DNA of 64,000 nt from Kutzneria kofuensis (GTDB lineage Bacteria; Actinomycetota; Actinomycetes; Mycobacteriales; Pseudonocardiaceae): the NCBI RefSeq assembly GCF_014203355.1, contig NZ_JACHIR010000001.1:682001-746000 (forward strand). The letters run 5' to 3'. The stretch's first letter is position 1; every line of letters begins with the position of its first letter. The notes below the pieces were generated by a model that saw only the letters and a program-made list of their open reading frames with translations, did no database searches and was not told the DNA's origin. Positions 8,129-18,354 of the stretch are shown here, piece by piece. The position numbers were made by a program, and so were the translations under genes.

Positions 8129-10273
8129 TTGTCCTTCAGACGGTTGACATATTCACTTTTCTGCGCGGCCCTGCTGTGCGTGCTGCCCCTGCCAGCCGCA
8201 CACGCCCGGACCCAGACCGCGTCGGGCGGCCTGGCTCCGACGCAGAGCAACGGCGTCGCCGCCACACCGCAGCTCGGCTGGAGCAGCTGGAGCTTCGTGC
8301 GGAACAATCCGACCGAGGCCGACATCGAGGCGCAGGCCCGCGCCATGCATGACAGCGGACTGGTCGCGCACGGCTACACGTACCTCAACATCGACGACTT
8401 CTACTACCTCAACCCCGCGACCACAGTGGACTCCGGCGGCCGCTGGGCGATCGACCCGAACCGCTTCCCGCACGGCATGGCGGCGGTCGCCGACTACGTG
8501 CACGGTCTCGGCGAGAAGTTCGGCATGTACCTGACGCCCGGCATCCCCGTCGCCGCGTACCAGCAGAACACACCGATCACCGGCACCGGCTGGCACGCCC
8601 GCGACATCGTGTCCTACACCAGCCGGTACGAGACCAACTACAACTTCGGCAACGGCTCGATGTACTACATCGACTACGCCAAGAACCCGGCCGCCGCGCA
8701 GGCGTTCCTGAACTCCTGGGCGAACCAGCTGGCGTCGTGGGGTGTCGACTACGTCAAGCTGGACGGAGTCGGCGACTGGGACATCCCGGACGTGCAGCAC
8801 TGGTCGCAGGCGCTCAACCAGGCCGGGCGGCCGATCCACTTCGAGCTGTCCAACTCGCTGGCGCTGTCCGACGCCGCGATCTGGAAGCAGTACGCCAACG
8901 GGTGGCGGATCGAGGGCGACGTCGAGTGCTACTGCAGCACCCTGACCAACTGGAACAACGTCGCTCAGCGCTTCGGCGACCTGCCGAACTGGACGGACTG
9001 GGCGGGCGCCGGCGGCTGGAACGACCCTGACTCGCTGGAGATCGGCGGTTCCAACACCGGGCTCACCGCGGACGAGCGGCGTACCGCGATGACGCTGTGG
9101 GCCGTCACCGCGTCGCCGATCACCCTGGGCACCGACCTGACCGCGCTCACCGCCGACGACCTGTCGCTGCTCACCAACGACGAGGTGCTCGCCGTCGACC
9201 AGCGTGGCAACGCCGCCCGGCCGGTCGACCGGCTGACCCAGTTGCAGACCTGGGCCACCGGCAACGCCGACGGCAGCTACACCGTGGCGCTGTTCAACCT
9301 CACCGGTTCGACCGCGACCGTCACCGCACGCTGGAGCGACCTCGGCTTCGGCGGCAGCGCCTCCGTGCGTGACCTGTGGTCGCACACCGATCTCGGCACC
9401 GCCGCCACCACGTTCAGCGCCTCGCTCGCGCCGCACGCCTCGCGGCTGCTGCGGGTCGTGCCGACCGCCGGGTTCCACTACACCGGCATGTACTACACGG
9501 TCTCCAACGCCAACGGCGCCCTGGACGTGACGTCCTCGTCCGTCGTGCAGCGTCCCTTGAGCGGCGCTGCCACCCAGACGTGGCAGGCCGTCCCGTCCGG
9601 CGCCGGCACCGTCAAACTGGTCAACCGCAGCACCGGTCTTCTGCTCACCGTGCCCAACTCCACGCCCGGCGCGTCGCTCGTGCAGTCCCGTGACAGCGGG
9701 GCTGCCTCGCAGTGGCGGGTTGCTGGCTCTGCCATCACCAGCGCCCAGAACGGTCTCGTTGTCGGCGCCGGTTCGAGCACCGTCGTTCAGGCCGTCGGCA
9801 CCGGCGCTGCCGACCAGCAGTGGCAGCTGACGCCCGTCATCGACGCCGGCACGCGGTACAAGCTCGTCAACCTCAACAGCGGTGGGCGGATGGACGTCGA
9901 CAACGACTCCACCGCCGACGGCGCCAAGGTGCTGCAGTGGGAGGACAACGAGCAGGCCGACCAGCTGTGGACGCTGTCCCCCGCCGGCAACGGGCTGTAC
10001 ACCATCACCAACGTCAACAGCGGCAAGCTGCTCAACGTGCCCGGGGCATCGACCACTCAGGGCACCCAGCTCATCCAGTACCACGACGACGGCAATTCCA
10101 ACTCGCGCTGGCGGCTCGTCGACGCCGGCCCCAACCGCCTCGGCATCGTCAGCGCCTCCAGCGGCCTGCAGCTGGACGCGTACAACAACTCCCTCTCCGA
10201 CGGCGCCGCGATCATCCAGTGGTCCGGCAACAACGGCGCCAACCAGAAGTGGACGCTCGTGCCGGCGTCCTGA
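8129..10273 (+). CDS. Secreted GH27 alpha-galactosidase with ricin-type lectin modules
   Basis: A 714-residue exported enzyme. Residues 1-27 are a signal peptide ending in AHA. The GH27 barrel follows, with LGWSSWSF, NIDDFYYL (about residue 87), YVKLDG carrying the likely nucleophile Asp212, and IEGDVE carrying the candidate acid/base Asp264. A beta-sandwich follows the barrel. From about residue 450 to the end are two ricin-B-like carbohydrate-binding modules with repeated YKLVNLNSG / QWED..DQLW motifs. It would release alpha-galactose from plant galactomannan or oligosaccharides outside the cell. The start is TTG after GAGGGTGG. It is monocistronic, ending at a hairpin shared with the convergent gene. 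Confidence 0.92.
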   Translation: MSFRRLTYSLFCAALLCVLPLPAAHARTQTASGGLAPTQSNGVAATPQLGWSSWSFVRNNPTEADIEAQARAMHDSGLVAHGYTYLNIDDFYYLNPATTVDSGGRWAIDPNRFPHGMAAVADYVHGLGEKFGMYLTPGIPVAAYQQNTPITGTGWHARDIVSYTSRYETNYNFGNGSMYYIDYAKNPAAAQAFLNSWANQLASWGVDYVKLDGVGDWDIPDVQHWSQALNQAGRPIHFELSNSLALSDAAIWKQYANGWRIEGDVECYCSTLTNWNNVAQRFGDLPNWTDWAGAGGWNDPDSLEIGGSNTGLTADERRTAMTLWAVTASPITLGTDLTALTADDLSLLTNDEVLAVDQRGNAARPVDRLTQLQTWATGNADGSYTVALFNLTGSTATVTARWSDLGFGGSASVRDLWSHTDLGTAATTFSASLAPHASRLLRVVPTAGFHYTGMYYTVSNANGALDVTSSSVVQRPLSGAATQTWQAVPSGAGTVKLVNRSTGLLLTVPNSTPGASLVQSRDSGAASQWRVAGSAITSAQNGLVVGAGSSTVVQAVGTGAADQQWQLTPVIDAGTRYKLVNLNSGGRMDVDNDSTADGAKVLQWEDNEQADQLWTLSPAGNGLYTITNVNSGKLLNVPGASTTQGTQLIQYHDDGNSNSRWRLVDAGPNRLGIVSASSGLQLDAYNNSLSDGAAIIQWSGNNGANQKWTLVPAS

Positions 10274-10308: not shown

Positions 10309-11256
10309 CTACTTCGCGGTCTTGATCAGCGGCGCGTCCCGGGACAGCTCCCGGAACCCGACGCCGTAGTACAGCTCGCGCGCCCTGACATGCGCGGGCG
10401 CCCCCAGGCACGCGACCGTGGCGTGGTTGGCCCCGGCCTCCCGGGCCAGCTGCATTCCGTGCAACAGCATCGCCCTGCCCAAGCCGAGACGCCGGTAGCC
10501 CGGATGCGTCCCGACCGGCTCGAACTCGACGGTCTTGTTCACCTCGTCGAGCCACATGATCGTTGACGACGCCATCGTCCCGTCCGGCGCCTCCACCAGG
10601 ACGTGCAGGTCGCCGCGATACGCCGCCGTCTGCCGGACGCCGTCGTAGCTCTCCGCCGTGTACGCCGTCGGCGCCCAGGCGTCCACGTGGGCCTGGACGG
10701 CCGCCTCCGGGCCGGCCTCGTCCGCCGTGCGGAACCGGAAGCCGTCCGGCAGCACCGGCTTTTCCACGTCGGTCAGGTCCCGCTCGTTGAGCTGCGTCCA
10801 GGACCCCGCGTCGCCCAGCGCCTCCGTGTCCGTCTCGTAGCCGTGCGCCGCCCACCGCTTCAGGCCGTACTCATCGGCGGCCCCCGGCAACACCGTTCGC
10901 TCCAGGCCCGCCGCCGTCGCGTCGTACCAGTCGATCACCGCGTCGACCAGGCCGGCATGGTCGGGATGGACCTGGTACGCCAGGTAGGCGCCCTTGACGT
11001 CCCGCACCGACCCGTCGTTCCTCCTCACCTGGTGCGGCAGCTGGGCCCAGCCCCATGCCACCAGGTCCCCGCCGTCGAACCACAGCCGACGCCGCCAGCT
11101 CCCGCCGATGCTCGCGTAGCCCTTGCCCCAGTTCCAGGCCAGCTCCCCATACGACGCGTCGCTGTTCACCAGGTCCGGGCGGGTGGCCGTGACCCGCTGC
11201 GCCAGCTCCTGCATGAGCTGCAGGTCCTCGGCGGTCACCAGCTCGACGTTCGCCAT
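10309..11256 (-). CDS. GNAT-family N-acetyltransferase
   Basis: A 315-residue cytosolic protein. The C-terminal third is a GNAT fold with the acetyl-CoA-binding motif A (VGTHPGYRRLGLGRAMLLHG) near residue 245 and a closing ARELYYGVGF segment. The N-terminal half is a weaker, GNAT-like domain (FDGGDLVAWGWAQLP), so it may be a tandem-GNAT protein. The acceptor is unknown. I chose the ATG giving MANVELVTAED; an upstream in-frame ATG at 11316 adds 20 non-conserved residues. It lies 67 bp downstream of the ethylene-forming-enzyme-like gene on the same strand and could be co-transcribed with it. Confidence 0.8.
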   Translation of the reverse strand: MANVELVTAEDLQLMQELAQRVTATRPDLVNSDASYGELAWNWGKGYASIGGSWRRRLWFDGGDLVAWGWAQLPHQVRRNDGSVRDVKGAYLAYQVHPDHAGLVDAVIDWYDATAAGLERTVLPGAADEYGLKRWAAHGYETDTEALGDAGSWTQLNERDLTDVEKPVLPDGFRFRTADEAGPEAAVQAHVDAWAPTAYTAESYDGVRQTAAYRGDLHVLVEAPDGTMASSTIMWLDEVNKTVEFEPVGTHPGYRRLGLGRAMLLHGMQLAREAGANHATVACLGAPAHVRARELYYGVGFRELSRDAPLIKTAK

Positions 11257-11323
11257 AGTGCGCCACTGTGTCAGGGCTCCCCACGGCCGTCGAACCGTTT
11301 TCGGGCGACACCCCACACCACCG

Positions 11324-12376
11324 CTAAGCCCGACTCGCCGGCACCGACTCCCGCATCCGCGCCAGGATTTCCAGCCGGTCCTCCGCGAGAATCCGCCGCG
11401 TCGTCACCCGCTCCGGATAGCACCGCATGAACATGCTGGTGAAATGCGAGCCGTAGTGGATGACCTCCTCGGGCTCCCCGCCGGCGAGGGGACGAAGGGC
11501 GGCGGGGAAGTCGGGCTCGTGGAAGTAGGCGACGGAGTAGCGCTCACGGTCGGCCAGCTTCACCTTGTGCGGCGTGGAAAGCAGCTCGCCGGAGGTGAGG
11601 AACTGGAGGATGTCGCCCGGAAACACGGTGAACGTGCCGGGCACGGGGTCGACGAGGCGCCAGGGCTCCTCGTTCTCGAACGCGCCGGCGGAGCTCTCGT
11701 GGTCGAGCCAGTTGCGGGGGCGCTTCTCACCGGGAACGGGCGGCCGGACGAACAGGCCGTTGCCGACCTCGTCCTGGGTGGCGATGACGAGCATGCCGTA
11801 GTCGGTGTGAGCGCCGATGCCCCGGGTGGAAGCCTCGGACCGGGCGGGAAAGCGCAGCACACGCATGTGGTGCCAGCCGTCGGTGGCGAGGGTGGTGAGG
11901 GCGTTCATGTCGGCCAGCCCCAGGCCCAGGGCGGTGAGCTTGAGGATCTTGTCGCCGATGAGGCCGAACTGGGACATCAGGGCGGTCATGACGTCCCGGT
12001 AGACGGGGTCGGGCCAGGGCACGGGCCCGTGGCAGGGCCAGCCGGCGCGGACGCGGGGATCGGTGACCGGCACGTCCTTGCAGACGGTGAAGATCTCGGA
12101 GAAGTCCTGCTCCCCGGCGGTGACCTCCTCGCCGGAGGCGACATAGCCGGCATAGGTGAGATCGCTGACGAGGGCGGCCTTGTCGGGCAGCGGCCGGGCG
12201 AAGAAGCGGCGGCTCTCCCGCAGCGCCGCGGCGCTGACGGCGTTGGCGACGCTGCCGGTGGCGACCTGCAGGATGCCGTCGGACTGCCAGGTGCGGACGA
12301 GTTCGACGCCCAGCGCGATGTCCCAGATCGAACCGGTGACCTCGGCGGGCAGCTGGAAGGTTCGAAGTGTCGTCAT
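11324..12376 (-). CDS. efe: Ethylene-forming-enzyme-like 2-oxoglutarate/Fe(II) oxygenase
   Basis: A 350-residue protein, the same length as Pseudomonas syringae EFE and similar end to end as I recall that sequence. Shared blocks include SDLTY.GYVASGEEVTAG, AGWPCHGPVPWP, DGWHHMRVLRFP, RGIGAHTDYG, FPGDILQF, LLSTPHKVKL, AYFHEP and MFMRCYP. The iron ligands are His190, Asp192 and His270. Arg172 and Arg279 match EFE Arg171 and Arg277, and Glu84 and Cys319 are also kept. EFE turns 2-oxoglutarate into ethylene and CO2, and separately hydroxylates L-arginine. I chose the second ATG (MTTLRTF), which matches the EFE start. It lies downstream of egtD behind a hairpin. An isopenicillin-N-synthase-like oxygenase without ethylene activity is the alternative. 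Confidence 0.85.
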   Translation of the reverse strand: MTTLRTFQLPAEVTGSIWDIALGVELVRTWQSDGILQVATGSVANAVSAAALRESRRFFARPLPDKAALVSDLTYAGYVASGEEVTAGEQDFSEIFTVCKDVPVTDPRVRAGWPCHGPVPWPDPVYRDVMTALMSQFGLIGDKILKLTALGLGLADMNALTTLATDGWHHMRVLRFPARSEASTRGIGAHTDYGMLVIATQDEVGNGLFVRPPVPGEKRPRNWLDHESSAGAFENEEPWRLVDPVPGTFTVFPGDILQFLTSGELLSTPHKVKLADRERYSVAYFHEPDFPAALRPLAGGEPEEVIHYGSHFTSMFMRCYPERVTTRRILAEDRLEILARMRESVPASRA

Positions 12377-12439
12377 GGCGTGCACACGGTCGTGCGGGCA
12401 CGAACGGTTCTACGGGACGCCGAAGCAGGCCTAAAGATA

Positions 12440-12471
12440 CATCGGCGGCGCCCCGGAGAACGCCGCCGATG
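12440..12471. terminator. Hairpin between egtD and the EFE-like gene
   Basis: An 11-bp stem (CATCGGCGGCG and its complement) with a 10-nt loop lies 14 bp past the egtD stop. It lacks a T-run. It probably ends or attenuates egt transcription before the EFE-like gene. Confidence 0.6.
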
Positions 12472-12484
12472 ATCGGGCATTACG

Positions 12485-13456
12485 TCACTCCGCGCGGGAC
12501 AGCGATACCGCGAAGCGCCGCGCGCTGTCGGTCCACCAGTGCGACAGGGCGAAGCCGGCGTCGGCGAGCTCGGCGGTGACGCGCTCGTGGCGGAACTTGG
12601 CGGAGATCTCGGTGCGCATCTCCTCCCCCTCGGCGAAGTCGATCTCGATGCCGGCGCCGGGCAGCTTCACGTGCATGGGCCGCAGCGCCCGTAGCCGCAT
12701 CTCGATCCACTCGTCGACGTCGTCCCACAGCGCCACGTGCTGGAAGGCGTCGGCGTCGAAGTCGGCGTCGAGTTCACGGTTGACGACACGGAGCACGTTG
12801 AGGTTGAACTCGGCGGTCACGCCCTGCGCGTCGTCGTACGCCGGGACCAGCACGCCGGGGTCCTTCACGAGGTCGGTGCCGAGCAGCAGCCACTCCCCCG
12901 GCTCCAGCACCGCACGGATGGAGCCGAAGAACTTGGCCCGCTCCGCCGGCAGCAGGTTGCCGATGGTGCCGCCGAGGAACGCCACCATCCGCGGCCCCTC
13001 GCCGGGCAGCAGCGCCAGGTGCTCGGTGAAGTCTCCGACCACGGCGTGCACGGACAGGCCCGGGTACTCGCCGACGATCGTCTCGGCGGCCGCGCGCAGG
13101 GCGCTCTCCGAGACGTCCATCGGCACGAACTGACGCAGCGATCCGTTGTCCCGCAATGCATCCAACAGCGTCCGGGTCTTGTCGGACGAGCCGGAGCCGA
13201 GTTCGATCAGTGTCCGCGCCTGGGTCACCGAGGCGATCTCGGCGGCCCGGGCCCGCAGCACCTCCCGCTCGGCCCGGGTCGGGTAGTACTCGGGCAGCTC
13301 GGTGATCCGCTCGAACAGGTCGCTGCCGACCGCGTCGTAGAACCACTTGGGCGGCAACGACTTCAGCGGACCGGCCAGCCCGGCGCGCACGTCGTTGCGC
13401 AGCGCGCGGGCCATGTGGTCGGCGGTGAGGTGGTTTTCCACTACCGGGTTAGTCAT
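12485..13456 (-). CDS. egtD: L-histidine N-alpha-methyltransferase (ergothioneine biosynthesis)
   Basis: A 323-residue SAM-dependent methyltransferase that trimethylates L-histidine to hercynine, the first step of ergothioneine synthesis. It shows the EgtD N-terminal PPKWFYDAVGSDLFERIT motif, the SAM-binding IELGSGSSDKT loop, the FLGGTIGNL segment and a C-terminal FRHERV...GF.L..WWTD block. Its ATG overlaps the egtC stop by ATGA. It is the last gene of the coupled egtA-B-C-D operon. Confidence 0.96.
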   Translation of the reverse strand: MTNPVVENHLTADHMARALRNDVRAGLAGPLKSLPPKWFYDAVGSDLFERITELPEYYPTRAEREVLRARAAEIASVTQARTLIELGSGSSDKTRTLLDALRDNGSLRQFVPMDVSESALRAAAETIVGEYPGLSVHAVVGDFTEHLALLPGEGPRMVAFLGGTIGNLLPAERAKFFGSIRAVLEPGEWLLLGTDLVKDPGVLVPAYDDAQGVTAEFNLNVLRVVNRELDADFDADAFQHVALWDDVDEWIEMRLRALRPMHVKLPGAGIEIDFAEGEEMRTEISAKFRHERVTAELADAGFALSHWWTDSARRFAVSLSRAE

Positions 13457-14214
13457 GGTTCCTGCCGTCCTGGATCCAGGGGTCGGATGTCCACAGTGGT
13501 CTTGGAGGCGAACACGATGCTGCGGTCGGGCACGGCGACCCACGCCGGGTCGTCGTCGATGGGCTCGGACGCGACGGTCACCGCGCCCGGCCCGGGCCGC
13601 ACCCACAGCGAGTGCCACCACGCGGTGGCGACGAGCAGTTCGTCGTTGCCCAGCAACAGGTTCAGTCTCGAGTCGGGCGCGGCGGCGGCCACCTCCAGCA
13701 TGACCGCCTCGATCGCGTCCACCGGCTCCTGCCCGGCCCGCAGCCGGTGCCGGACCAGCGCCCACAGCAGCGCCGCGTCGGTCGGGGCGTCCAACGTGAG
13801 CAGGTCGGTGACGGGCAACCGCTGGGCCAGCAGCGAAACGCTGTCCGGCCAGCCGCGTACGACCCCGTTGTGGCTGAACAGCCAGCTCCCCTCGGCGAAG
13901 GGGGCGCTGGCCGTCTCCACCACGGGCATGCCGACGGTCGCGGACCGCGCGGCCGCGACCACGGCCGTCGCCGTGGTCGCGGTGGCCAGCGAGGCGAACG
14001 CGGTGTCGGTCCACATCGGCACCGCACGCCGGTAGCGCACCGGCGACTTCTCGCCGGGCGCGAACCAGCCCGCGCCGAACCCGTCGGCGTTGATGGTCCC
14101 GCCGTGCCGCATGTCCCGCGGCGCGTACGACTGGTGCAGCAGCGAGTGCGGCGGCGCCAGCAGCAGGTCGGCCAGCGGCACGGCGGGGCCCAGGTAACCC
14201 AGATGGCGGCACAC
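13453..14214 (-). CDS. egtC: Gamma-glutamyl-hercynylcysteine sulfoxide hydrolase
   Basis: A 253-residue Ntn-hydrolase of the class-II glutamine amidotransferase type. It removes the gamma-glutamyl group from the EgtB product. The protein begins MCRHLGYLG, placing the catalytic Cys2 next to the start, which fixes the GTG at 14214. GWFAPGEKSPVRYRR and LFSHNGVV are further family blocks. It starts 5 bp after the egtB stop and overlaps egtD by ATGA. Confidence 0.95.
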   Translation of the reverse strand: MCRHLGYLGPAVPLADLLLAPPHSLLHQSYAPRDMRHGGTINADGFGAGWFAPGEKSPVRYRRAVPMWTDTAFASLATATTATAVVAAARSATVGMPVVETASAPFAEGSWLFSHNGVVRGWPDSVSLLAQRLPVTDLLTLDAPTDAALLWALVRHRLRAGQEPVDAIEAVMLEVAAAAPDSRLNLLLGNDELLVATAWWHSLWVRPGPGAVTVASEPIDDDPAWVAVPDRSIVFASKTTVDIRPLDPGRQEP

Positions 14215-14219
14215 CGGCG

Positions 14220-15524
14220 TCAGTCCCGCCGGTGGTCGCGGGCGCACCGGAAGCCGGCGAAGATCTGCCGCCGGATCGGGTGGTCCCAGTTGCGGAAGGT
14301 GCCGCGCACGGCCGCCTTGTCGGTGCCGAACGAGCCGCCCCGCAGCATCTTGTAGTCCCCGCCGAAGAACACCTCGGAGTACTCCCGGTACGGGAACGCC
14401 TTGAAGCCCGGATACGGCTGGAAGCCGGAGTCGAGCCACTCCCACACGTCGCCGATCAGCTGCCGCACGCCCAGCGGCGACTGCCCGAGCGGGTACGCGC
14501 CGACCGGGGCCGGCCGCAGGTGCAGCTGGCCGAGGTTGGCGTGCTCCGGCGTCGGATCCTCGTCGCCCCAGGGATACCGGCGGGACCGTCCCGTCTCCGG
14601 GTCGAAGCGGGCCGCCTTCTCCCACTCCGGCTCGGTGGGCAGCCGCTTGCCGGCCCACGCCGCGTACGCCTCCGCCTCGAAGTAGCAGACGTGCACGACC
14701 GGCTCGTCCGGCGGAATCGGTTCGACCACGCCGAATCTGGTGCGCAGCCAGCCGTCGCCGTCCCGCTGCCAGAACCGAGGGGCGGTCAGCTTGGCCTCGT
14801 TGCGGTACGCCCAGCCACGCTCGCTCCACCAGCGCGGGTCGTCGTAGCCGCCGGCGTCCATGAACGCCAGGTACTGCCCGTTGCTCACGGGCGTGGTGTC
14901 GATCCAGTACGAGTCGACGTGCACCTGGTGCGCGGGCCGCTCGTTGTCCAGCGCCCACGGCTCCAGCGAGGTGCCCATCTCGAACGGGCCGCCGGGCACG
15001 AACACCTCGGCCGGCAGCCGCTCGGCCGGCGCCGCCGGCGGGTTGGGCGCGTGCAGCACGGGCGCGCCCTTGCGGAGCTGGTGGGTGGCCAGCATGGTCT
15101 CGTCGTGCTGCTGCTCGTGCTGCACGATCATGCCGAAGGCGAAGCCGTTCTCGACCAGCCGGCGGCCTTCCAACGGCGTGCGGTCGAGCACGTCGAACAC
15201 CTTGTCCCGCACCTCACGCACGTAGGTGCGGGCCTCCACCGGGTTGAGCAGCGGCAGCGCCGGCCGTTCGGCCCGCGGGTGCTGGAACGCGTCGTACAGC
15301 TCGTCGATGTCCTGGCGAACCGGGTCCCGGCCGCCGACGTCGCGCACCAGCCACAGCTCCTCCTGGTTGCCGATGTGGGCGAGGTCCCACACCAGCGGCG
15401 ACATCAGCTTGGAGTGCTGGCGGACCAGGTCGTCGTCGTCCACGGCGTCGGTGAGCAGGGTACTGCGGTTCCGCGAGCGCTCGAGCGCCTCGGCGATGGC
15501 AGAACGGAGATCGAGAGTGGTCAC
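14220..15524 (-). CDS. egtB: Hercynine oxygenase (iron-dependent sulfoxide synthase)
   Basis: A 434-residue EgtB that joins gamma-glutamylcysteine to hercynine using O2 and non-haem iron. The N-terminal DinB-like half carries His50 and the HEQQHDE motif (His136, His140), matching the three-histidine iron site known from EgtB. The C-terminal half is an FGE-sulfatase fold with FEMGTS, RLPTEPEWEKAAR, GDVWEW and LRGGSFGT. The GTG start overlaps the egtA stop by GTGA with GAGG upstream. Confidence 0.96.
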   Translation of the reverse strand: MTTLDLRSAIAEALERSRNRSTLLTDAVDDDDLVRQHSKLMSPLVWDLAHIGNQEELWLVRDVGGRDPVRQDIDELYDAFQHPRAERPALPLLNPVEARTYVREVRDKVFDVLDRTPLEGRRLVENGFAFGMIVQHEQQHDETMLATHQLRKGAPVLHAPNPPAAPAERLPAEVFVPGGPFEMGTSLEPWALDNERPAHQVHVDSYWIDTTPVSNGQYLAFMDAGGYDDPRWWSERGWAYRNEAKLTAPRFWQRDGDGWLRTRFGVVEPIPPDEPVVHVCYFEAEAYAAWAGKRLPTEPEWEKAARFDPETGRSRRYPWGDEDPTPEHANLGQLHLRPAPVGAYPLGQSPLGVRQLIGDVWEWLDSGFQPYPGFKAFPYREYSEVFFGGDYKMLRGGSFGTDKAAVRGTFRNWDHPIRRQIFAGFRCARDHRRD

Positions 15525-16843
15525 AGACCCTCCTCGCTAGCGCTCGGCGCGTCTGCGACGCAGGTCCCGGTGTTGAATGGTTCGCTCGCAAGCTCGCTCA
15601 CGGTGTTGCCTCCAAGCTTCGCGGTGGCCGTCGCGAGCCGGCGATCGAGGCTGTCGATCACCGGTGCGGACAGCTCCGTCGGCAGGCCGAGCCGGTGCAT
15701 GTTGCGCAGGCCCAGCTCGAGTGCGGCGGCCGCGGCCCGGGCGACCAACGGGTCGTCCAGGCCGTGCCGGGCCGCCGGCAGCCAGCGCCCCGCGGCGGGC
15801 GCGGCCGCATCCAGCGCGGCGTCGACCACGTCGTCCGCGCTGAACAGCGCGATGAGCAGCGCGACCGCCGGGCTCCAGTCACCGGGCGGCTGCGAGTCCA
15901 GGTACCGCACCTCGAAGTAGCCGCGCGGCCGGACCGGGGTGAACATCGTGCTCAGGTGGTAGTCGAGGTCCTCGGTGGTGGGCACGCCGGGCAGCGCGCC
16001 GGCGATCCAGTCGGCGAAGGTGACGTCGCCGGGCACGTCCCAGCTGTCGCCGCCGTGCCGGAAGCAGATCATCGGCGTGTCCAGCACCCGACGGGCCCAG
16101 CTCGCCGCCGGGTCGTCGCCGGTGTCGCCCGGGCCGCTGCGGGCGGGCTCGGCGCCCAGCACCACGCGGGTGCGGGCGGAGGCCCACCCGGTCGGTCGGC
16201 CGGCCAGTCCCGGCGAGTTGGCGAACACCGCCAGCAGCGCCGGACCCAGCGCGTGCAGCGCGTTCCAGCGGGTGGCGACCTGTCCCGCCTCGCCCGTGTC
16301 CAGGCACACCTGCAGGCCCGCGGTGCTGCACATCATGACCACACCGTCGGGTCCGTGCCGGTCGAAGCGGGAGTTCATCGCCGCGTAGCGCGGGGTGTTC
16401 AGAATCCGGCGCGGTGGGCGATAGGGATCGGTTCCGGCCGTGCCCAGTTCCAGTCCTTCGGCCGCCAGCAGCTGCTGCAGCTGCGCGATGTCGGCGGAGA
16501 CGGTGGTGAGCAGGTCGGCGGTTGTCGTCTTCGGTGGAGTGCTGATCTCCACCTGGCCACCGGGCTCGACGGTGACAGGGGAACCACCGCGAAGCGGCAG
16601 GTTCGGGCTGTCGGGCCGGAGCGTGGCGGGGGCGTGCGGCCCCAGGGCTTTCGCCAGGACGTGTTGGTCGAGCGGCTGACATCGGTCCTGCGCGTGGTGC
16701 ACCGTCCACTCGATCTCAGCCCCGACGTACCTCGGTGGCCCGTGCTTGAAGCAGACCGAGGCCACGTACGCCTCGGCCCGCTCACGGTCCCGAAGTAAGT
16801 CGGGCGCCGGATCGGTGGCGGGAGTAACACTGACGGTAGTCAC
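15521..16843 (-). CDS. egtA: Glutamate-cysteine ligase, ergothioneine type
   Basis: A 440-residue GCS2-family ligase supplying gamma-glutamylcysteine for EgtB. Recognisable blocks are YVGAEIEWTVHH, a GG...VEPGGQVEISTPP substrate loop, the PRYAAMNSRFD segment, MCSTAGLQVCLD and GYFEVRYLDSQP. I chose the GTG giving MTTVSVTPATDP because AGGGTGG lies just upstream; the open frame continues 23 codons further. It opens the egtA-B-C-D operon. No egtE (C-S lyase) is found in the cluster, so that step must be encoded elsewhere. Confidence 0.94.
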   Translation of the reverse strand: MTTVSVTPATDPAPDLLRDRERAEAYVASVCFKHGPPRYVGAEIEWTVHHAQDRCQPLDQHVLAKALGPHAPATLRPDSPNLPLRGGSPVTVEPGGQVEISTPPKTTTADLLTTVSADIAQLQQLLAAEGLELGTAGTDPYRPPRRILNTPRYAAMNSRFDRHGPDGVVMMCSTAGLQVCLDTGEAGQVATRWNALHALGPALLAVFANSPGLAGRPTGWASARTRVVLGAEPARSGPGDTGDDPAASWARRVLDTPMICFRHGGDSWDVPGDVTFADWIAGALPGVPTTEDLDYHLSTMFTPVRPRGYFEVRYLDSQPPGDWSPAVALLIALFSADDVVDAALDAAAPAAGRWLPAARHGLDDPLVARAAAAALELGLRNMHRLGLPTELSAPVIDSLDRRLATATAKLGGNTVSELASEPFNTGTCVADAPSASEEGL

Positions 16844-16995
16844 CGTTACCACCCTTCGTGATCGTCGTCGTTCCGACGCTACACGGAGGGTCTGACAATC
16901 GCACGGGCTCACAGGTCAGGCTGGCGGTCGTTCACCTGTTGGTAAGGACTGCCGGACAACCGGTCGCCCGACCGCTGCCCGTCCGGTCACCGGGT

Positions 16996-17031: not shown

Positions 17032-18354
17032 TCACCGCCGGCTCAGCACGAAGTGGGAGTGCCGGGGGCGGTACGTCGTGCTGGCCAGCGGCTCGGGGTC
17101 CACGTGCACCGGCGTCAGGTTCCACGAGCCGAAGAACGTCGCCACCATGATCATCATCTCGGTGAAGGCGAAGGACTCGCCGATGCACTTGCGCACGCCG
17201 GCGCCGAACGGGAGGAAGGCCTGGCGGTGCATGGACCGGGCCCGCTCCGGCAGCCAGCGGTCCGGGTCGAACCGGCGGGGGTCGTCGAAGTTGCGGGGAT
17301 CCATGTGCAGCGCGTACGGGCTGAACATGACGTCGGCGCCGGCCGGGATGTGCACCCCGTCCAGCTCCACGTCGGTGGTGGCGTAGCGGGTGAGCAGCCA
17401 CGCCACCGGGTACATGCGCAGCGCCTCCTGCACCACCCGGCCGGTGTACTCCAGCTTGGGCATGTCCTCGTAGTCGATGCGCCGCCCGGCCAGCACCAGG
17501 TCGAGCTCCTCGTGCATGCGGTCGCGGATGTCGGGATGCTGGTGCAGGGCGTAGGCCATCCACAGCAGCATCGTCGCGGACGTCTCGGTGCCGGCGACCA
17601 TCATGCTGCGCACCTCGTCGTGCAGCTGGGTGTCGGTCATGCCGGTGCCGGTGTCGTCCTGAGCCATCATCATCATCGACATCAGGTCGCCGTGGTCGAC
17701 GCCGCCGCGCCGGTACTCGGCGATGACGTTGTCCACCACCCGGTGCAGCTCCCGCATGGCGGCGTCCTCGCGCAGCTTGGGCGGCAGCGGCAGCTTGTGC
17801 ACGAACGAGATCGGGATGAACGCCCGCCGGCCCACGCCGTTGACGATCACCTGCATCACGGCGCGCACCTCGGCGGCGGTGTCGGTGTCCTTGACGCCGG
17901 CGAACAGGCACCGGGTCAGCGCGTCCATCGTCGCCACGTTCATCAGGGCGTCGAAGTCCACGGTGGAGCCGTCGACCCACTCGTCGGCGATCTCCTGCGA
18001 CACCTGGGCCATCACCTCGGTGTAGCGGGCCAGCCGGCTGTGGTGGAACGCCGGCTGCATGAGCGGCCGCGCGCGGCGGGCCTGCTCGCGGTCGCAGCCG
18101 ACCAGACCGTTGCCCAGCAACGGCTTCGACTGCTTGAACAGCGGCCCGCCCTTGTCGAAGCAGTGCGACTTGGTGATCAGCAGCTCCTTCATCAGGTCGG
18201 GGGTGCTGATCAGGTACGCGGGCCGCGGCCCCAGGTTGAACCGGACGACGCTGCCGGTGTCGCGCAGCTGCTCGACGAACTCCAGCGGCCGGCGTAGAAG
18301 ATCCACTGCGTGTCCGAGCAGCGGCAGGCCGCCCGGCAAGACGTTGATCGTCAT
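17032..18354 (-). CDS. Cytochrome P450
   Basis: A 440-residue soluble P450 mono-oxygenase. Visible motifs are the I-helix AGTETSA, the ExxR motif in EALRMYP, the PERF-like FDPDRWLPER and the haem loop FLPFGAGVRKCIGE with the thiolate Cys. The sequence is closest in style to actinomycete P450s that oxidise terpenes (CYP170/183-like), with the opening LPGGLPLLGHAVDLLRRPLEF. There is no terpene synthase or ferredoxin gene next to it, so the substrate is open. It is a single-gene unit between the egt operon and a terminator. Confidence 0.92.
   Translation of the reverse strand: MTINVLPGGLPLLGHAVDLLRRPLEFVEQLRDTGSVVRFNLGPRPAYLISTPDLMKELLITKSHCFDKGGPLFKQSKPLLGNGLVGCDREQARRARPLMQPAFHHSRLARYTEVMAQVSQEIADEWVDGSTVDFDALMNVATMDALTRCLFAGVKDTDTAAEVRAVMQVIVNGVGRRAFIPISFVHKLPLPPKLREDAAMRELHRVVDNVIAEYRRGGVDHGDLMSMMMMAQDDTGTGMTDTQLHDEVRSMMVAGTETSATMLLWMAYALHQHPDIRDRMHEELDLVLAGRRIDYEDMPKLEYTGRVVQEALRMYPVAWLLTRYATTDVELDGVHIPAGADVMFSPYALHMDPRNFDDPRRFDPDRWLPERARSMHRQAFLPFGAGVRKCIGESFAFTEMMIMVATFFGSWNLTPVHVDPEPLASTTYRPRHSHFVLSRR

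What the first reader, a model, noticed from the sequence alone, without database searches (positions are those of the whole stretch)
11324..12376. Actinomycete homologue of the ethylene-forming enzyme
The protein aligns end to end with P. syringae EFE from memory and keeps the iron triad (His190/Asp192/His270), both 2-oxoglutarate or arginine-contacting Arg residues, Glu84 and Cys319. Known EFEs are mainly from plant-associated Pseudomonas and Ralstonia and from Penicillium. One in an actinomycete next to the ergothioneine genes would be of note, for ethylene or for arginine-derived products.
Basis: partly seen in the sequence, partly recalled or inferred. Interest (0 to 1): 0.8.

Follow-up and report, generated by a model that had tools for sequence, protein, structure and literature searches.

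The report
Ethylene-forming enzyme homologue in Kutzneria
This soil actinomycete carries a well-preserved relative of the bacterial enzyme that makes ethylene gas and guanidine from common metabolites; such relatives turn out to be frequent in actinomycetes, so the gene is a likely but untested ethylene or guanidine maker rather than a surprise.

Summary
On the minus strand, 11324-12376 encodes an intact 350-residue Fe(II)/2OG oxygenase, 208 of 339 aligned residues identical to P. savastanoi PK2 EFE, with the Fe triad, R277 and all 14 compared L-Arg-site positions unchanged. That actinomycete EFEs are exceptional is not supported: 58 of 80 kept loci are Actinomycetota, and an S. scabiei homologue is in print. 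The genus is Kutzneria by kinship. Adjacency to egtD holds in 5 of 5 EFE-bearing Kutzneria and 0 of 77 other loci; a strong hairpin and a conserved leader between egtD and efe suggest separate transcription. Only Kutzneria has a one-residue insertion (206) and A199T together with A279S. A199G lowers ethylene in PK2 EFE, so product partitioning may differ. Five of five EFE-bearing Kutzneria, and neither of two without EFE, have an over-threshold guanidine-I riboswitch before guanidine-catabolism-type genes, but no such link exists across the family. Best reading: a true EFE making ethylene and guanidine; activity was not tested.

The parts
11324..12376 (-). efe homologue, 350 aa Fe(II)/2OG oxygenase (P0002)
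12377..12414 (-). Leader just upstream of efe (CGTAGAACCGTTCG...GCC), well conserved in four Kutzneria species; likely promoter/leader region (inference; the sigma-70 scan found no site)
12440..12471 (-). 14-bp stem, 4-nt loop hairpin between egtD and efe; strong hairpins of other sequence also lie in this gap in three other Kutzneria; likely terminator (inference)
12485..13456 (-). egtD, L-histidine N-alpha-methyltransferase (TIGR03438 366 bits, over cut-off)
13453..14214 (-). egtC (TIGR03442 286 bits, over cut-off); start approximate
14220..15524 (-). egtB (TIGR03440 451 bits, over cut-off)
15521..16912 (-). egtA (TIGR03444 371.0 bits, cut-off 370.8); start may be nearer 16765
10309..11316 (-). 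GNAT acetyltransferase downstream of efe, 7 bp after its stop on the GTG start; not called next to efe in the other four Kutzneria, so not a conserved partner

Best explanation
The gene encodes a genuine ethylene-forming enzyme of Kutzneria. With Fe(II), O2, 2-oxoglutarate and L-Arg it is expected to run the two EFE reactions: 2OG to ethylene plus CO2, and 2OG-driven C5-hydroxylation of L-Arg, whose product falls apart to P5C and guanidine. Shown: intact ORF, close end-to-end homology, preserved catalytic and arginine sites, purifying selection, confident predicted fold. Inferred: activity, products, and their ratio, which may lean less to ethylene than in PK2 because of A199T and A279S. It is probably transcribed from its own promoter, not as part of the egt operon (inference).
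For: End-to-end match to PK2 EFE, E = 2.2e-141, 208/339 identical. All 14 arginine-site positions compared identical, 16 of 19 pocket or metal positions identical. E84, R171, F175, H189, D191, Y192, R277, E215, F283, E285, R316 invariant in 84 of 84 aligned rows. M. stipitatus EFE, 63% identical to PK2, makes ethylene in yeast, though at low amounts (PMC4202696, section 6), so a homologue at this distance can be active. dN/dS 0.16-0.31 among four Kutzneria copies. Guanidine-I riboswitch over the cut-off before guanidine-catabolism-type genes in 5 of 5 EFE-bearing Kutzneria and 0 of 2 without.
Against: PK2 A199 is T here; A199G clearly lowers ethylene in PK2. PK2 A279 is S, a change also found, together with others, in nearly inactive reconstructed ancestors (PMC12329707, section 19). 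The window keeps 6 of the 10 ethylene-correlated positions of PMC4202696; it differs at A199, E213, F278 and I322, and of these A199 and E213 (the latter tested only together with V212) mattered there, F278 and I322 did not. The Kutzneria clade has a unique insertion and a long stem (0.40 in the quick tree). The riboswitch link is absent family-wide (5 of 32 against 35 of 358, p = 0.35); the two genomes of the genus without EFE do have sub-threshold guanidine-I matches; and none of 21 sampled EFE loci holds a guanidine riboswitch at gathering score, nor does the window.
Confidence: 0.74

Rival explanations
1. Same enzyme, shifted purpose: mainly an arginine C5-hydroxylase / guanidine former (or a 2OG burner) with little ethylene, because the Kutzneria 2OG pocket and oxygen-tunnel edge have changed.
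For: A199T plus A279S together only in the four Kutzneria of 84 rows; unique insertion at residue 206, 0 of 79 other rows; V246T in 4 of 4 Kutzneria (5 of 79 others have T), at a position named as an oxygen-tunnel gatekeeper in PK2 (PMC12060275, passages); guanidine-I riboswitch operons in the same genomes.
Against: A279 is T or S in 51 of 84 rows, so it may be neutral; A198, whose V variant essentially loses ethylene, is kept; the reconstructed ancestors that kept activity made both products, one (Node 384) with a high ethylene share.
Confidence: 0.17
2. An ergothioneine-pathway oxygenase (for example acting on hercynine or ergothioneine) recruited from EFE.
For: Sits directly after egtD in 5 of 5 EFE-bearing Kutzneria, where egtE stands in the textbook order (recalled); no egtE over the family cut-off in 7 of 7 genomes, although unlinked matches of 292-319 bits exist in four.
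Against: Arginine site unchanged at 14 of 14 positions; no egt gene in 77 of 77 other EFE loci; hairpin and own leader between egtD and efe.
Confidence: 0.05
3. Decaying or inactive EFE.
For: Long stem of the Kutzneria clade; pocket changes; likely inactive relatives exist (Kibdelosporangium paralogue without metal ligands).
Against: Intact frame, dN/dS 0.16-0.31, complete metal, 2OG-carboxylate and arginine sites.
Confidence: 0.04

Closest known systems
EFE of Pseudomonas savastanoi/syringae PK2 (UniProt P32021; PDB 5v2t group)
   Same: End-to-end alignment, Fe triad, R171, R277, R316, E84-T86 lid, beta11 loop with E215, C317; 61% identical.
   Different: A199T, A279S, C280V, F278Y, P93S, V246T; one-residue insertions at window 155 (shared with 42 of 79 others) and 206 (Kutzneria only); on an 8.7 Mb contig, next to egtABCD.
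Myxococcus stipitatus EFE (PMC4202696)
   Same: Non-plant-pathogen EFE at about the same distance from PK2; four other Myxococcus relatives seen here keep the same arginine site but for V85L, and C317S in one.
   Different: Keeps all ten ethylene-correlated residues according to the paper; the window keeps six.
EFE-like genes of Streptomyces (including S. scabiei), Amycolatopsis, Lentzea, Frankia and others (loci)
   Same: Same family and, in nearly all rows, the same catalytic residues; actinomycete hosts.
   Different: No egt neighbours; no insertion at 206; A199 is A or V in all but two of the actinomycete rows outside Kutzneria.
Penicillium digitatum Pd1 EFE (9eir by inference)
   Same: Same family; 381 bits against the window protein.
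   Different: Lower similarity; N for C317, I for V85, F for C280 (PMC12329707, section 19).

Membership tests
Ethylene-forming enzyme (EFE) | End-to-end homology closer to EFE than to other 2OG oxygenases | tested here: met
   Ten best PDB sequences are EFEs, E = 2e-141 to 4e-113; the next are 3e-28 (also named EFE, perhaps a reconstructed ancestor) and 2e-23
Ethylene-forming enzyme (EFE) | Fe triad H189/D191/H268 | tested here: met
   H190/D192/H270
Ethylene-forming enzyme (EFE) | 2OG carboxylate arginine R277 and R171 | tested here: met
   R279 and R172; 84 of 84 rows
Ethylene-forming enzyme (EFE) | L-Arg site (E84, V85, T86, H116, R171, Y192, F283, H284, E285, F310, M313, F314, R316, C317; my list, from the papers read and recall) | tested here: met
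   14 of 14 identical to PK2
Ethylene-forming enzyme (EFE) | Lid 80-93 and long beta11 loop with E215 | tested here: met
   Both present; E217 in window
Ethylene-forming enzyme (EFE) | Hydrophobic 2OG pocket apart from carboxylate contacts | tested here: inconclusive
   L173, F175, V196, A198, A281 kept; P93S (79 of 84 rows have S), A199T, A279S
Ethylene-forming enzyme (EFE) | Ethylene from 2OG | not testable with these tools
   needs enzyme assay
Ethylene-forming enzyme (EFE) | L-Arg hydroxylation to P5C and guanidine | not testable with these tools
   needs enzyme assay
Ergothioneine biosynthesis gene | Homology to EgtA-E | tested here: not met
   no NCBIfam match for P0002 at E <= 0.001, Egt models included
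Ergothioneine biosynthesis gene | Linkage to egt genes across taxa | tested here: not met
   Kutzneria only; 0 of 77 other EFE loci; of all 80 loci 72 hold over 13 kb and 65 over 20 kb

The most novel reading that the evidence does not exclude
Kutzneria has turned EFE into a guanidine and P5C source tied to its own guanidine-I-riboswitch catabolic operon: a natural circuit of production, sensing and reuse of guanidine in a soil saprophyte, with the enzyme's 2OG pocket and oxygen-tunnel edge retuned away from ethylene (A199T, A279S, V246T, insertion 206).
Probability: 0.13. Interest if true: 0.6.

Novelty: new member of a known kind. Interest (0 to 1): 0.36.

Why it matters
The physiological role of EFE outside plant pathogens is open. 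A large actinomycete branch of the family, with natural variants at pocket positions known to matter for ethylene, gives ready material to test what sets the ethylene to guanidine ratio, and the co-occurring guanidine riboswitch operons in Kutzneria offer a test of whether guanidine is the useful product.

Tried and rejected
Rarity of actinomycete EFE: rejected. Co-transcription with egt as the default reading: weakened by hairpin and leader; the sigma-70 scan found no site, and the terminator count was not above shuffles (2 against a mean of 1.7), so the case for the hairpin rests on strong folds in this gap in four species. GNAT as partner: rejected, window only of five. Guanidine-III riboswitch: none at E <= 0.001 in 7 genomes. 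Guanidine-I linked to EFE across Pseudonocardiaceae: no, 0 of 27 EFE-bearing genomes outside Kutzneria have one over the cut-off, p = 0.35 family-wide; that search used stricter filters. The Kutzneria-only contrast, 5 of 5 against 0 of 2, has p = 0.048 and is confounded by kinship. Ethylene receptor domain PF25487: none in 7 genomes, but the control rang nowhere, so uninformative. Broken EFE in Kutzneria sp. 744: its missing first part is an assembly gap, a run of 100 N. Conserved neighbour genes across genera: ten cluster representatives were scanned and are common families (regulators, histidine kinases, ABC, SDR, P450, helicase, sigma factor, GGDEF) with no shared pathway; the rough gene caller missed the EFE in 4 of the 80 loci (L045, L052, L053, L077), so those were not in that clustering, but they were in the tblastn test. 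Structure comparison was unavailable, so the fold rests on sequence and the confident model. Penicillium EFE letters were not obtained, so its place on the tree is unknown. Rows: 109 EFE proteins were extracted; after removal of near-duplicates, with window and PK2 added, 88 rows; 84 kept, four left out because the gene is incomplete or interrupted in the record. L107 (several catalytic residues lost) was left out of the Kutzneria-specific counts.

Full report
What is there. The ORF at 11324-12376 is on the minus strand and encodes 350 aa. Against all PDB sequences its ten best matches are EFEs, the best being P. savastanoi PK2 EFE (E = 2.2e-141, residues 1-341). In my alignment 208 of 339 paired residues are identical. 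Pfam finds only the general 2OG-oxygenase domains and NCBIfam nothing at E <= 0.001. The AlphaFold2 model is confident (pLDDT 92.9, pTM 0.92, 38 sequences); it could not be compared with solved structures.

Active site. Metal ligands, R171, R277, E215, the lid and all 14 arginine-site positions compared equal PK2. Of 19 positions around 2OG and the metal 16 are equal; the differences are P93S (79 of 84 rows have S), A199T and A279S. A279 is A in 33, T in 44 and S in 7 of 84 rows; A199 is A in 69, V in 7, T in 7, S in 1. T199 with S279 together occurs only in the four Kutzneria rows. All four also carry a one-residue insertion at window residue 206, absent from 79 of 79 other rows (L107 dropped). 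PMC4202696 (section 6 and passages read) reports that A199G, I304N and V212Y/E213S clearly lower ethylene while F278Y and I322V do not; the window has T199, P213, Y278 and V322 and keeps I304 and V212. PMC12329707 (abstract, sections 7, 16, 18 and part 1 of 2 of section 19) argues that the 2OG pocket must be hydrophobic for ethylene, and lists A279S, with other changes, in nearly inactive ancestors. So the site is complete, but the product ratio cannot be read off.

Kin. Matches at E <= 1e-140 occur in 32 of 390 genomes of the family, in four of its genera (counted). A scan of one genome per GTDB species found 90 relatives, of which 80 were kept: 58 Actinomycetota, 9 Pseudomonadota, 7 Cyanobacteriota, 6 Myxococcota; it used two peptide patterns, so this is a lower bound. 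The Kutzneria EFEs form one clade (100/100; 100) on a long stem. The PK2 enzyme groups with Pseudomonas sequences. Bootstrap had not fully settled, so deeper branching is not claimed. Selection among Kutzneria copies is purifying (dN/dS 0.16-0.31).

Neighbourhood. The minus strand reads egtA-egtB-egtC-egtD-efe-GNAT. egtD is directly before efe in 5 of 5 EFE-bearing Kutzneria. The one other genome of the genus with egtD (G226) has the egt genes and no EFE-grade match; G225 has neither. tblastn of the four Egt proteins against the 80 EFE loci hit only the three Kutzneria ones (65 of the 80 loci are over 20 kb). Between egtD and efe there is a 14-bp hairpin (12440-12471). The same gap folds strongly in three other Kutzneria with different sequence (z -3.7 to -5.9 for the four; in K. 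buriramensis the gap is longer and the fold more complex), and a leader before efe is conserved in four species. I infer a terminator and a separate promoter. No egtE passes its cut-off in the genus; unlinked weaker matches exist.

Guanidine. EFE's second reaction yields guanidine, whose build-up harmed an engineered EFE-bearing cyanobacterium; co-expressing a guanidinase helped (PMC8390497, abstract). In Kutzneria a guanidine-I riboswitch over the gathering score is found in 5 of 5 EFE-bearing genomes and 0 of 2 others, which have only sub-threshold matches. In four it precedes a urea-carboxylase-system-type permease, UAAP1, UAAP2, a carboxyltransferase protein and, in three of the four in the same direction, an allophanate hydrolase; in sp. 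744 an arginase-family hydrolase and the permease (families scanned in G000 and sp. 744 only, the others judged by similar sequence and order). The carboxyltransferase protein lacks the biotin-carboxylase part (it covers 452-1107 of 1201 of TIGR02712), so the pathway is not shown to be complete. That UAAP1/2 form carboxyguanidine deiminase is recalled. Against a general link: outside Kutzneria 0 of 27 EFE-bearing genomes have such a riboswitch, and 21 sampled of the 80 EFE loci, two of them Kutzneria, hold none at gathering score.

In print. Actinomycete EFE homologues are described for S. scabiei and S. acidiscabies (PMC8369830, passages); a study of two Rhodococcus strains found no EFE (PMC7002392, passages). 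A review gives the EFE route to guanidine for Pseudomonas (PMC12186494, passages). Searches for EFE with Kutzneria, with Amycolatopsis and with ergothioneine listed 1, 4 and 4 papers, none evidently on this subject (titles and abstract starts only, of one also passages; most subscription journals are not held).

Verdict. A real EFE family member, most likely active, in a genus for which the papers I could search do not note it; a known kind. The pocket variants and the Kutzneria riboswitch coincidence make it testable and moderately interesting. The EFE-derived protein without metal ligands in Kibdelosporangium, noticed in passing, is stranger than the finding itself.

Noticed in passing
L157-L162 and L071 (9003-9926); L133-L136: In 7 of 8 genomes of the Kibdelosporangium group (g23) an EFE paralogue (254-305 aa depending on the start chosen, 34-40% identical to the window protein) has lost the Fe triad, R171, R277, the lid and the beta11 loop, yet keeps an open frame and pairwise dN/dS of 0.15-0.63, mostly under 0.45: an EFE-derived likely pseudoenzyme (residue table for five of the seven, the other two read from the alignment).
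   Followed up: partly
L157-L162 and L071: That paralogue sits in the same gene order in 7 of 7: methylmalonyl-CoA-mutase-like, Ehu-type ABC transporter genes, paralogue, enoyl-CoA hydratase (families scanned in L161 only); in K. banguiense (L071) a full-length EFE gene lies directly after it.
   Followed up: partly
L041: The record titled Rhodococcus rhodnii NRRL B-16535 has its closest EFE relative in Kibdelosporangium aridum (path 0.07), and its coordinates match G218, a 12.4 Mb genome placed in the window's family: probably a mislabelled record.
   Followed up: no
L107 (10001-10999): Nonomuraea typhae EFE homologue has A198T, H268N, A281T and C317R: probably a degenerate or repurposed EFE.
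   Followed up: no
L058, L074: In Lentzea terrae and S. scabiei, histidine-kinase genes (scanned) and a response-regulator-like gene (by look, not scanned) lie shortly upstream of EFE: possible two-component control.
   Followed up: no
L064 (9359-9762), L082 (9383-9786): In two Pseudomonas loci the EFE gene begins about 215-240 bp after the CrcZ small RNA gene, with PrrF further downstream.
   Followed up: no
window 17032-18354: Cytochrome P450 upstream of egtA (pentalenene-oxygenase-like, 398 bits, under the NCBIfam cut-off of 800), also called near efe in some of the other Kutzneria loci.
   Followed up: no
window 8129-10273 (+): Alpha-galactosidase (melibiase) with ricin-type lectin repeats, beyond the GNAT gene and convergent with efe; a homologue lies near efe in the five Kutzneria loci.
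   Followed up: no
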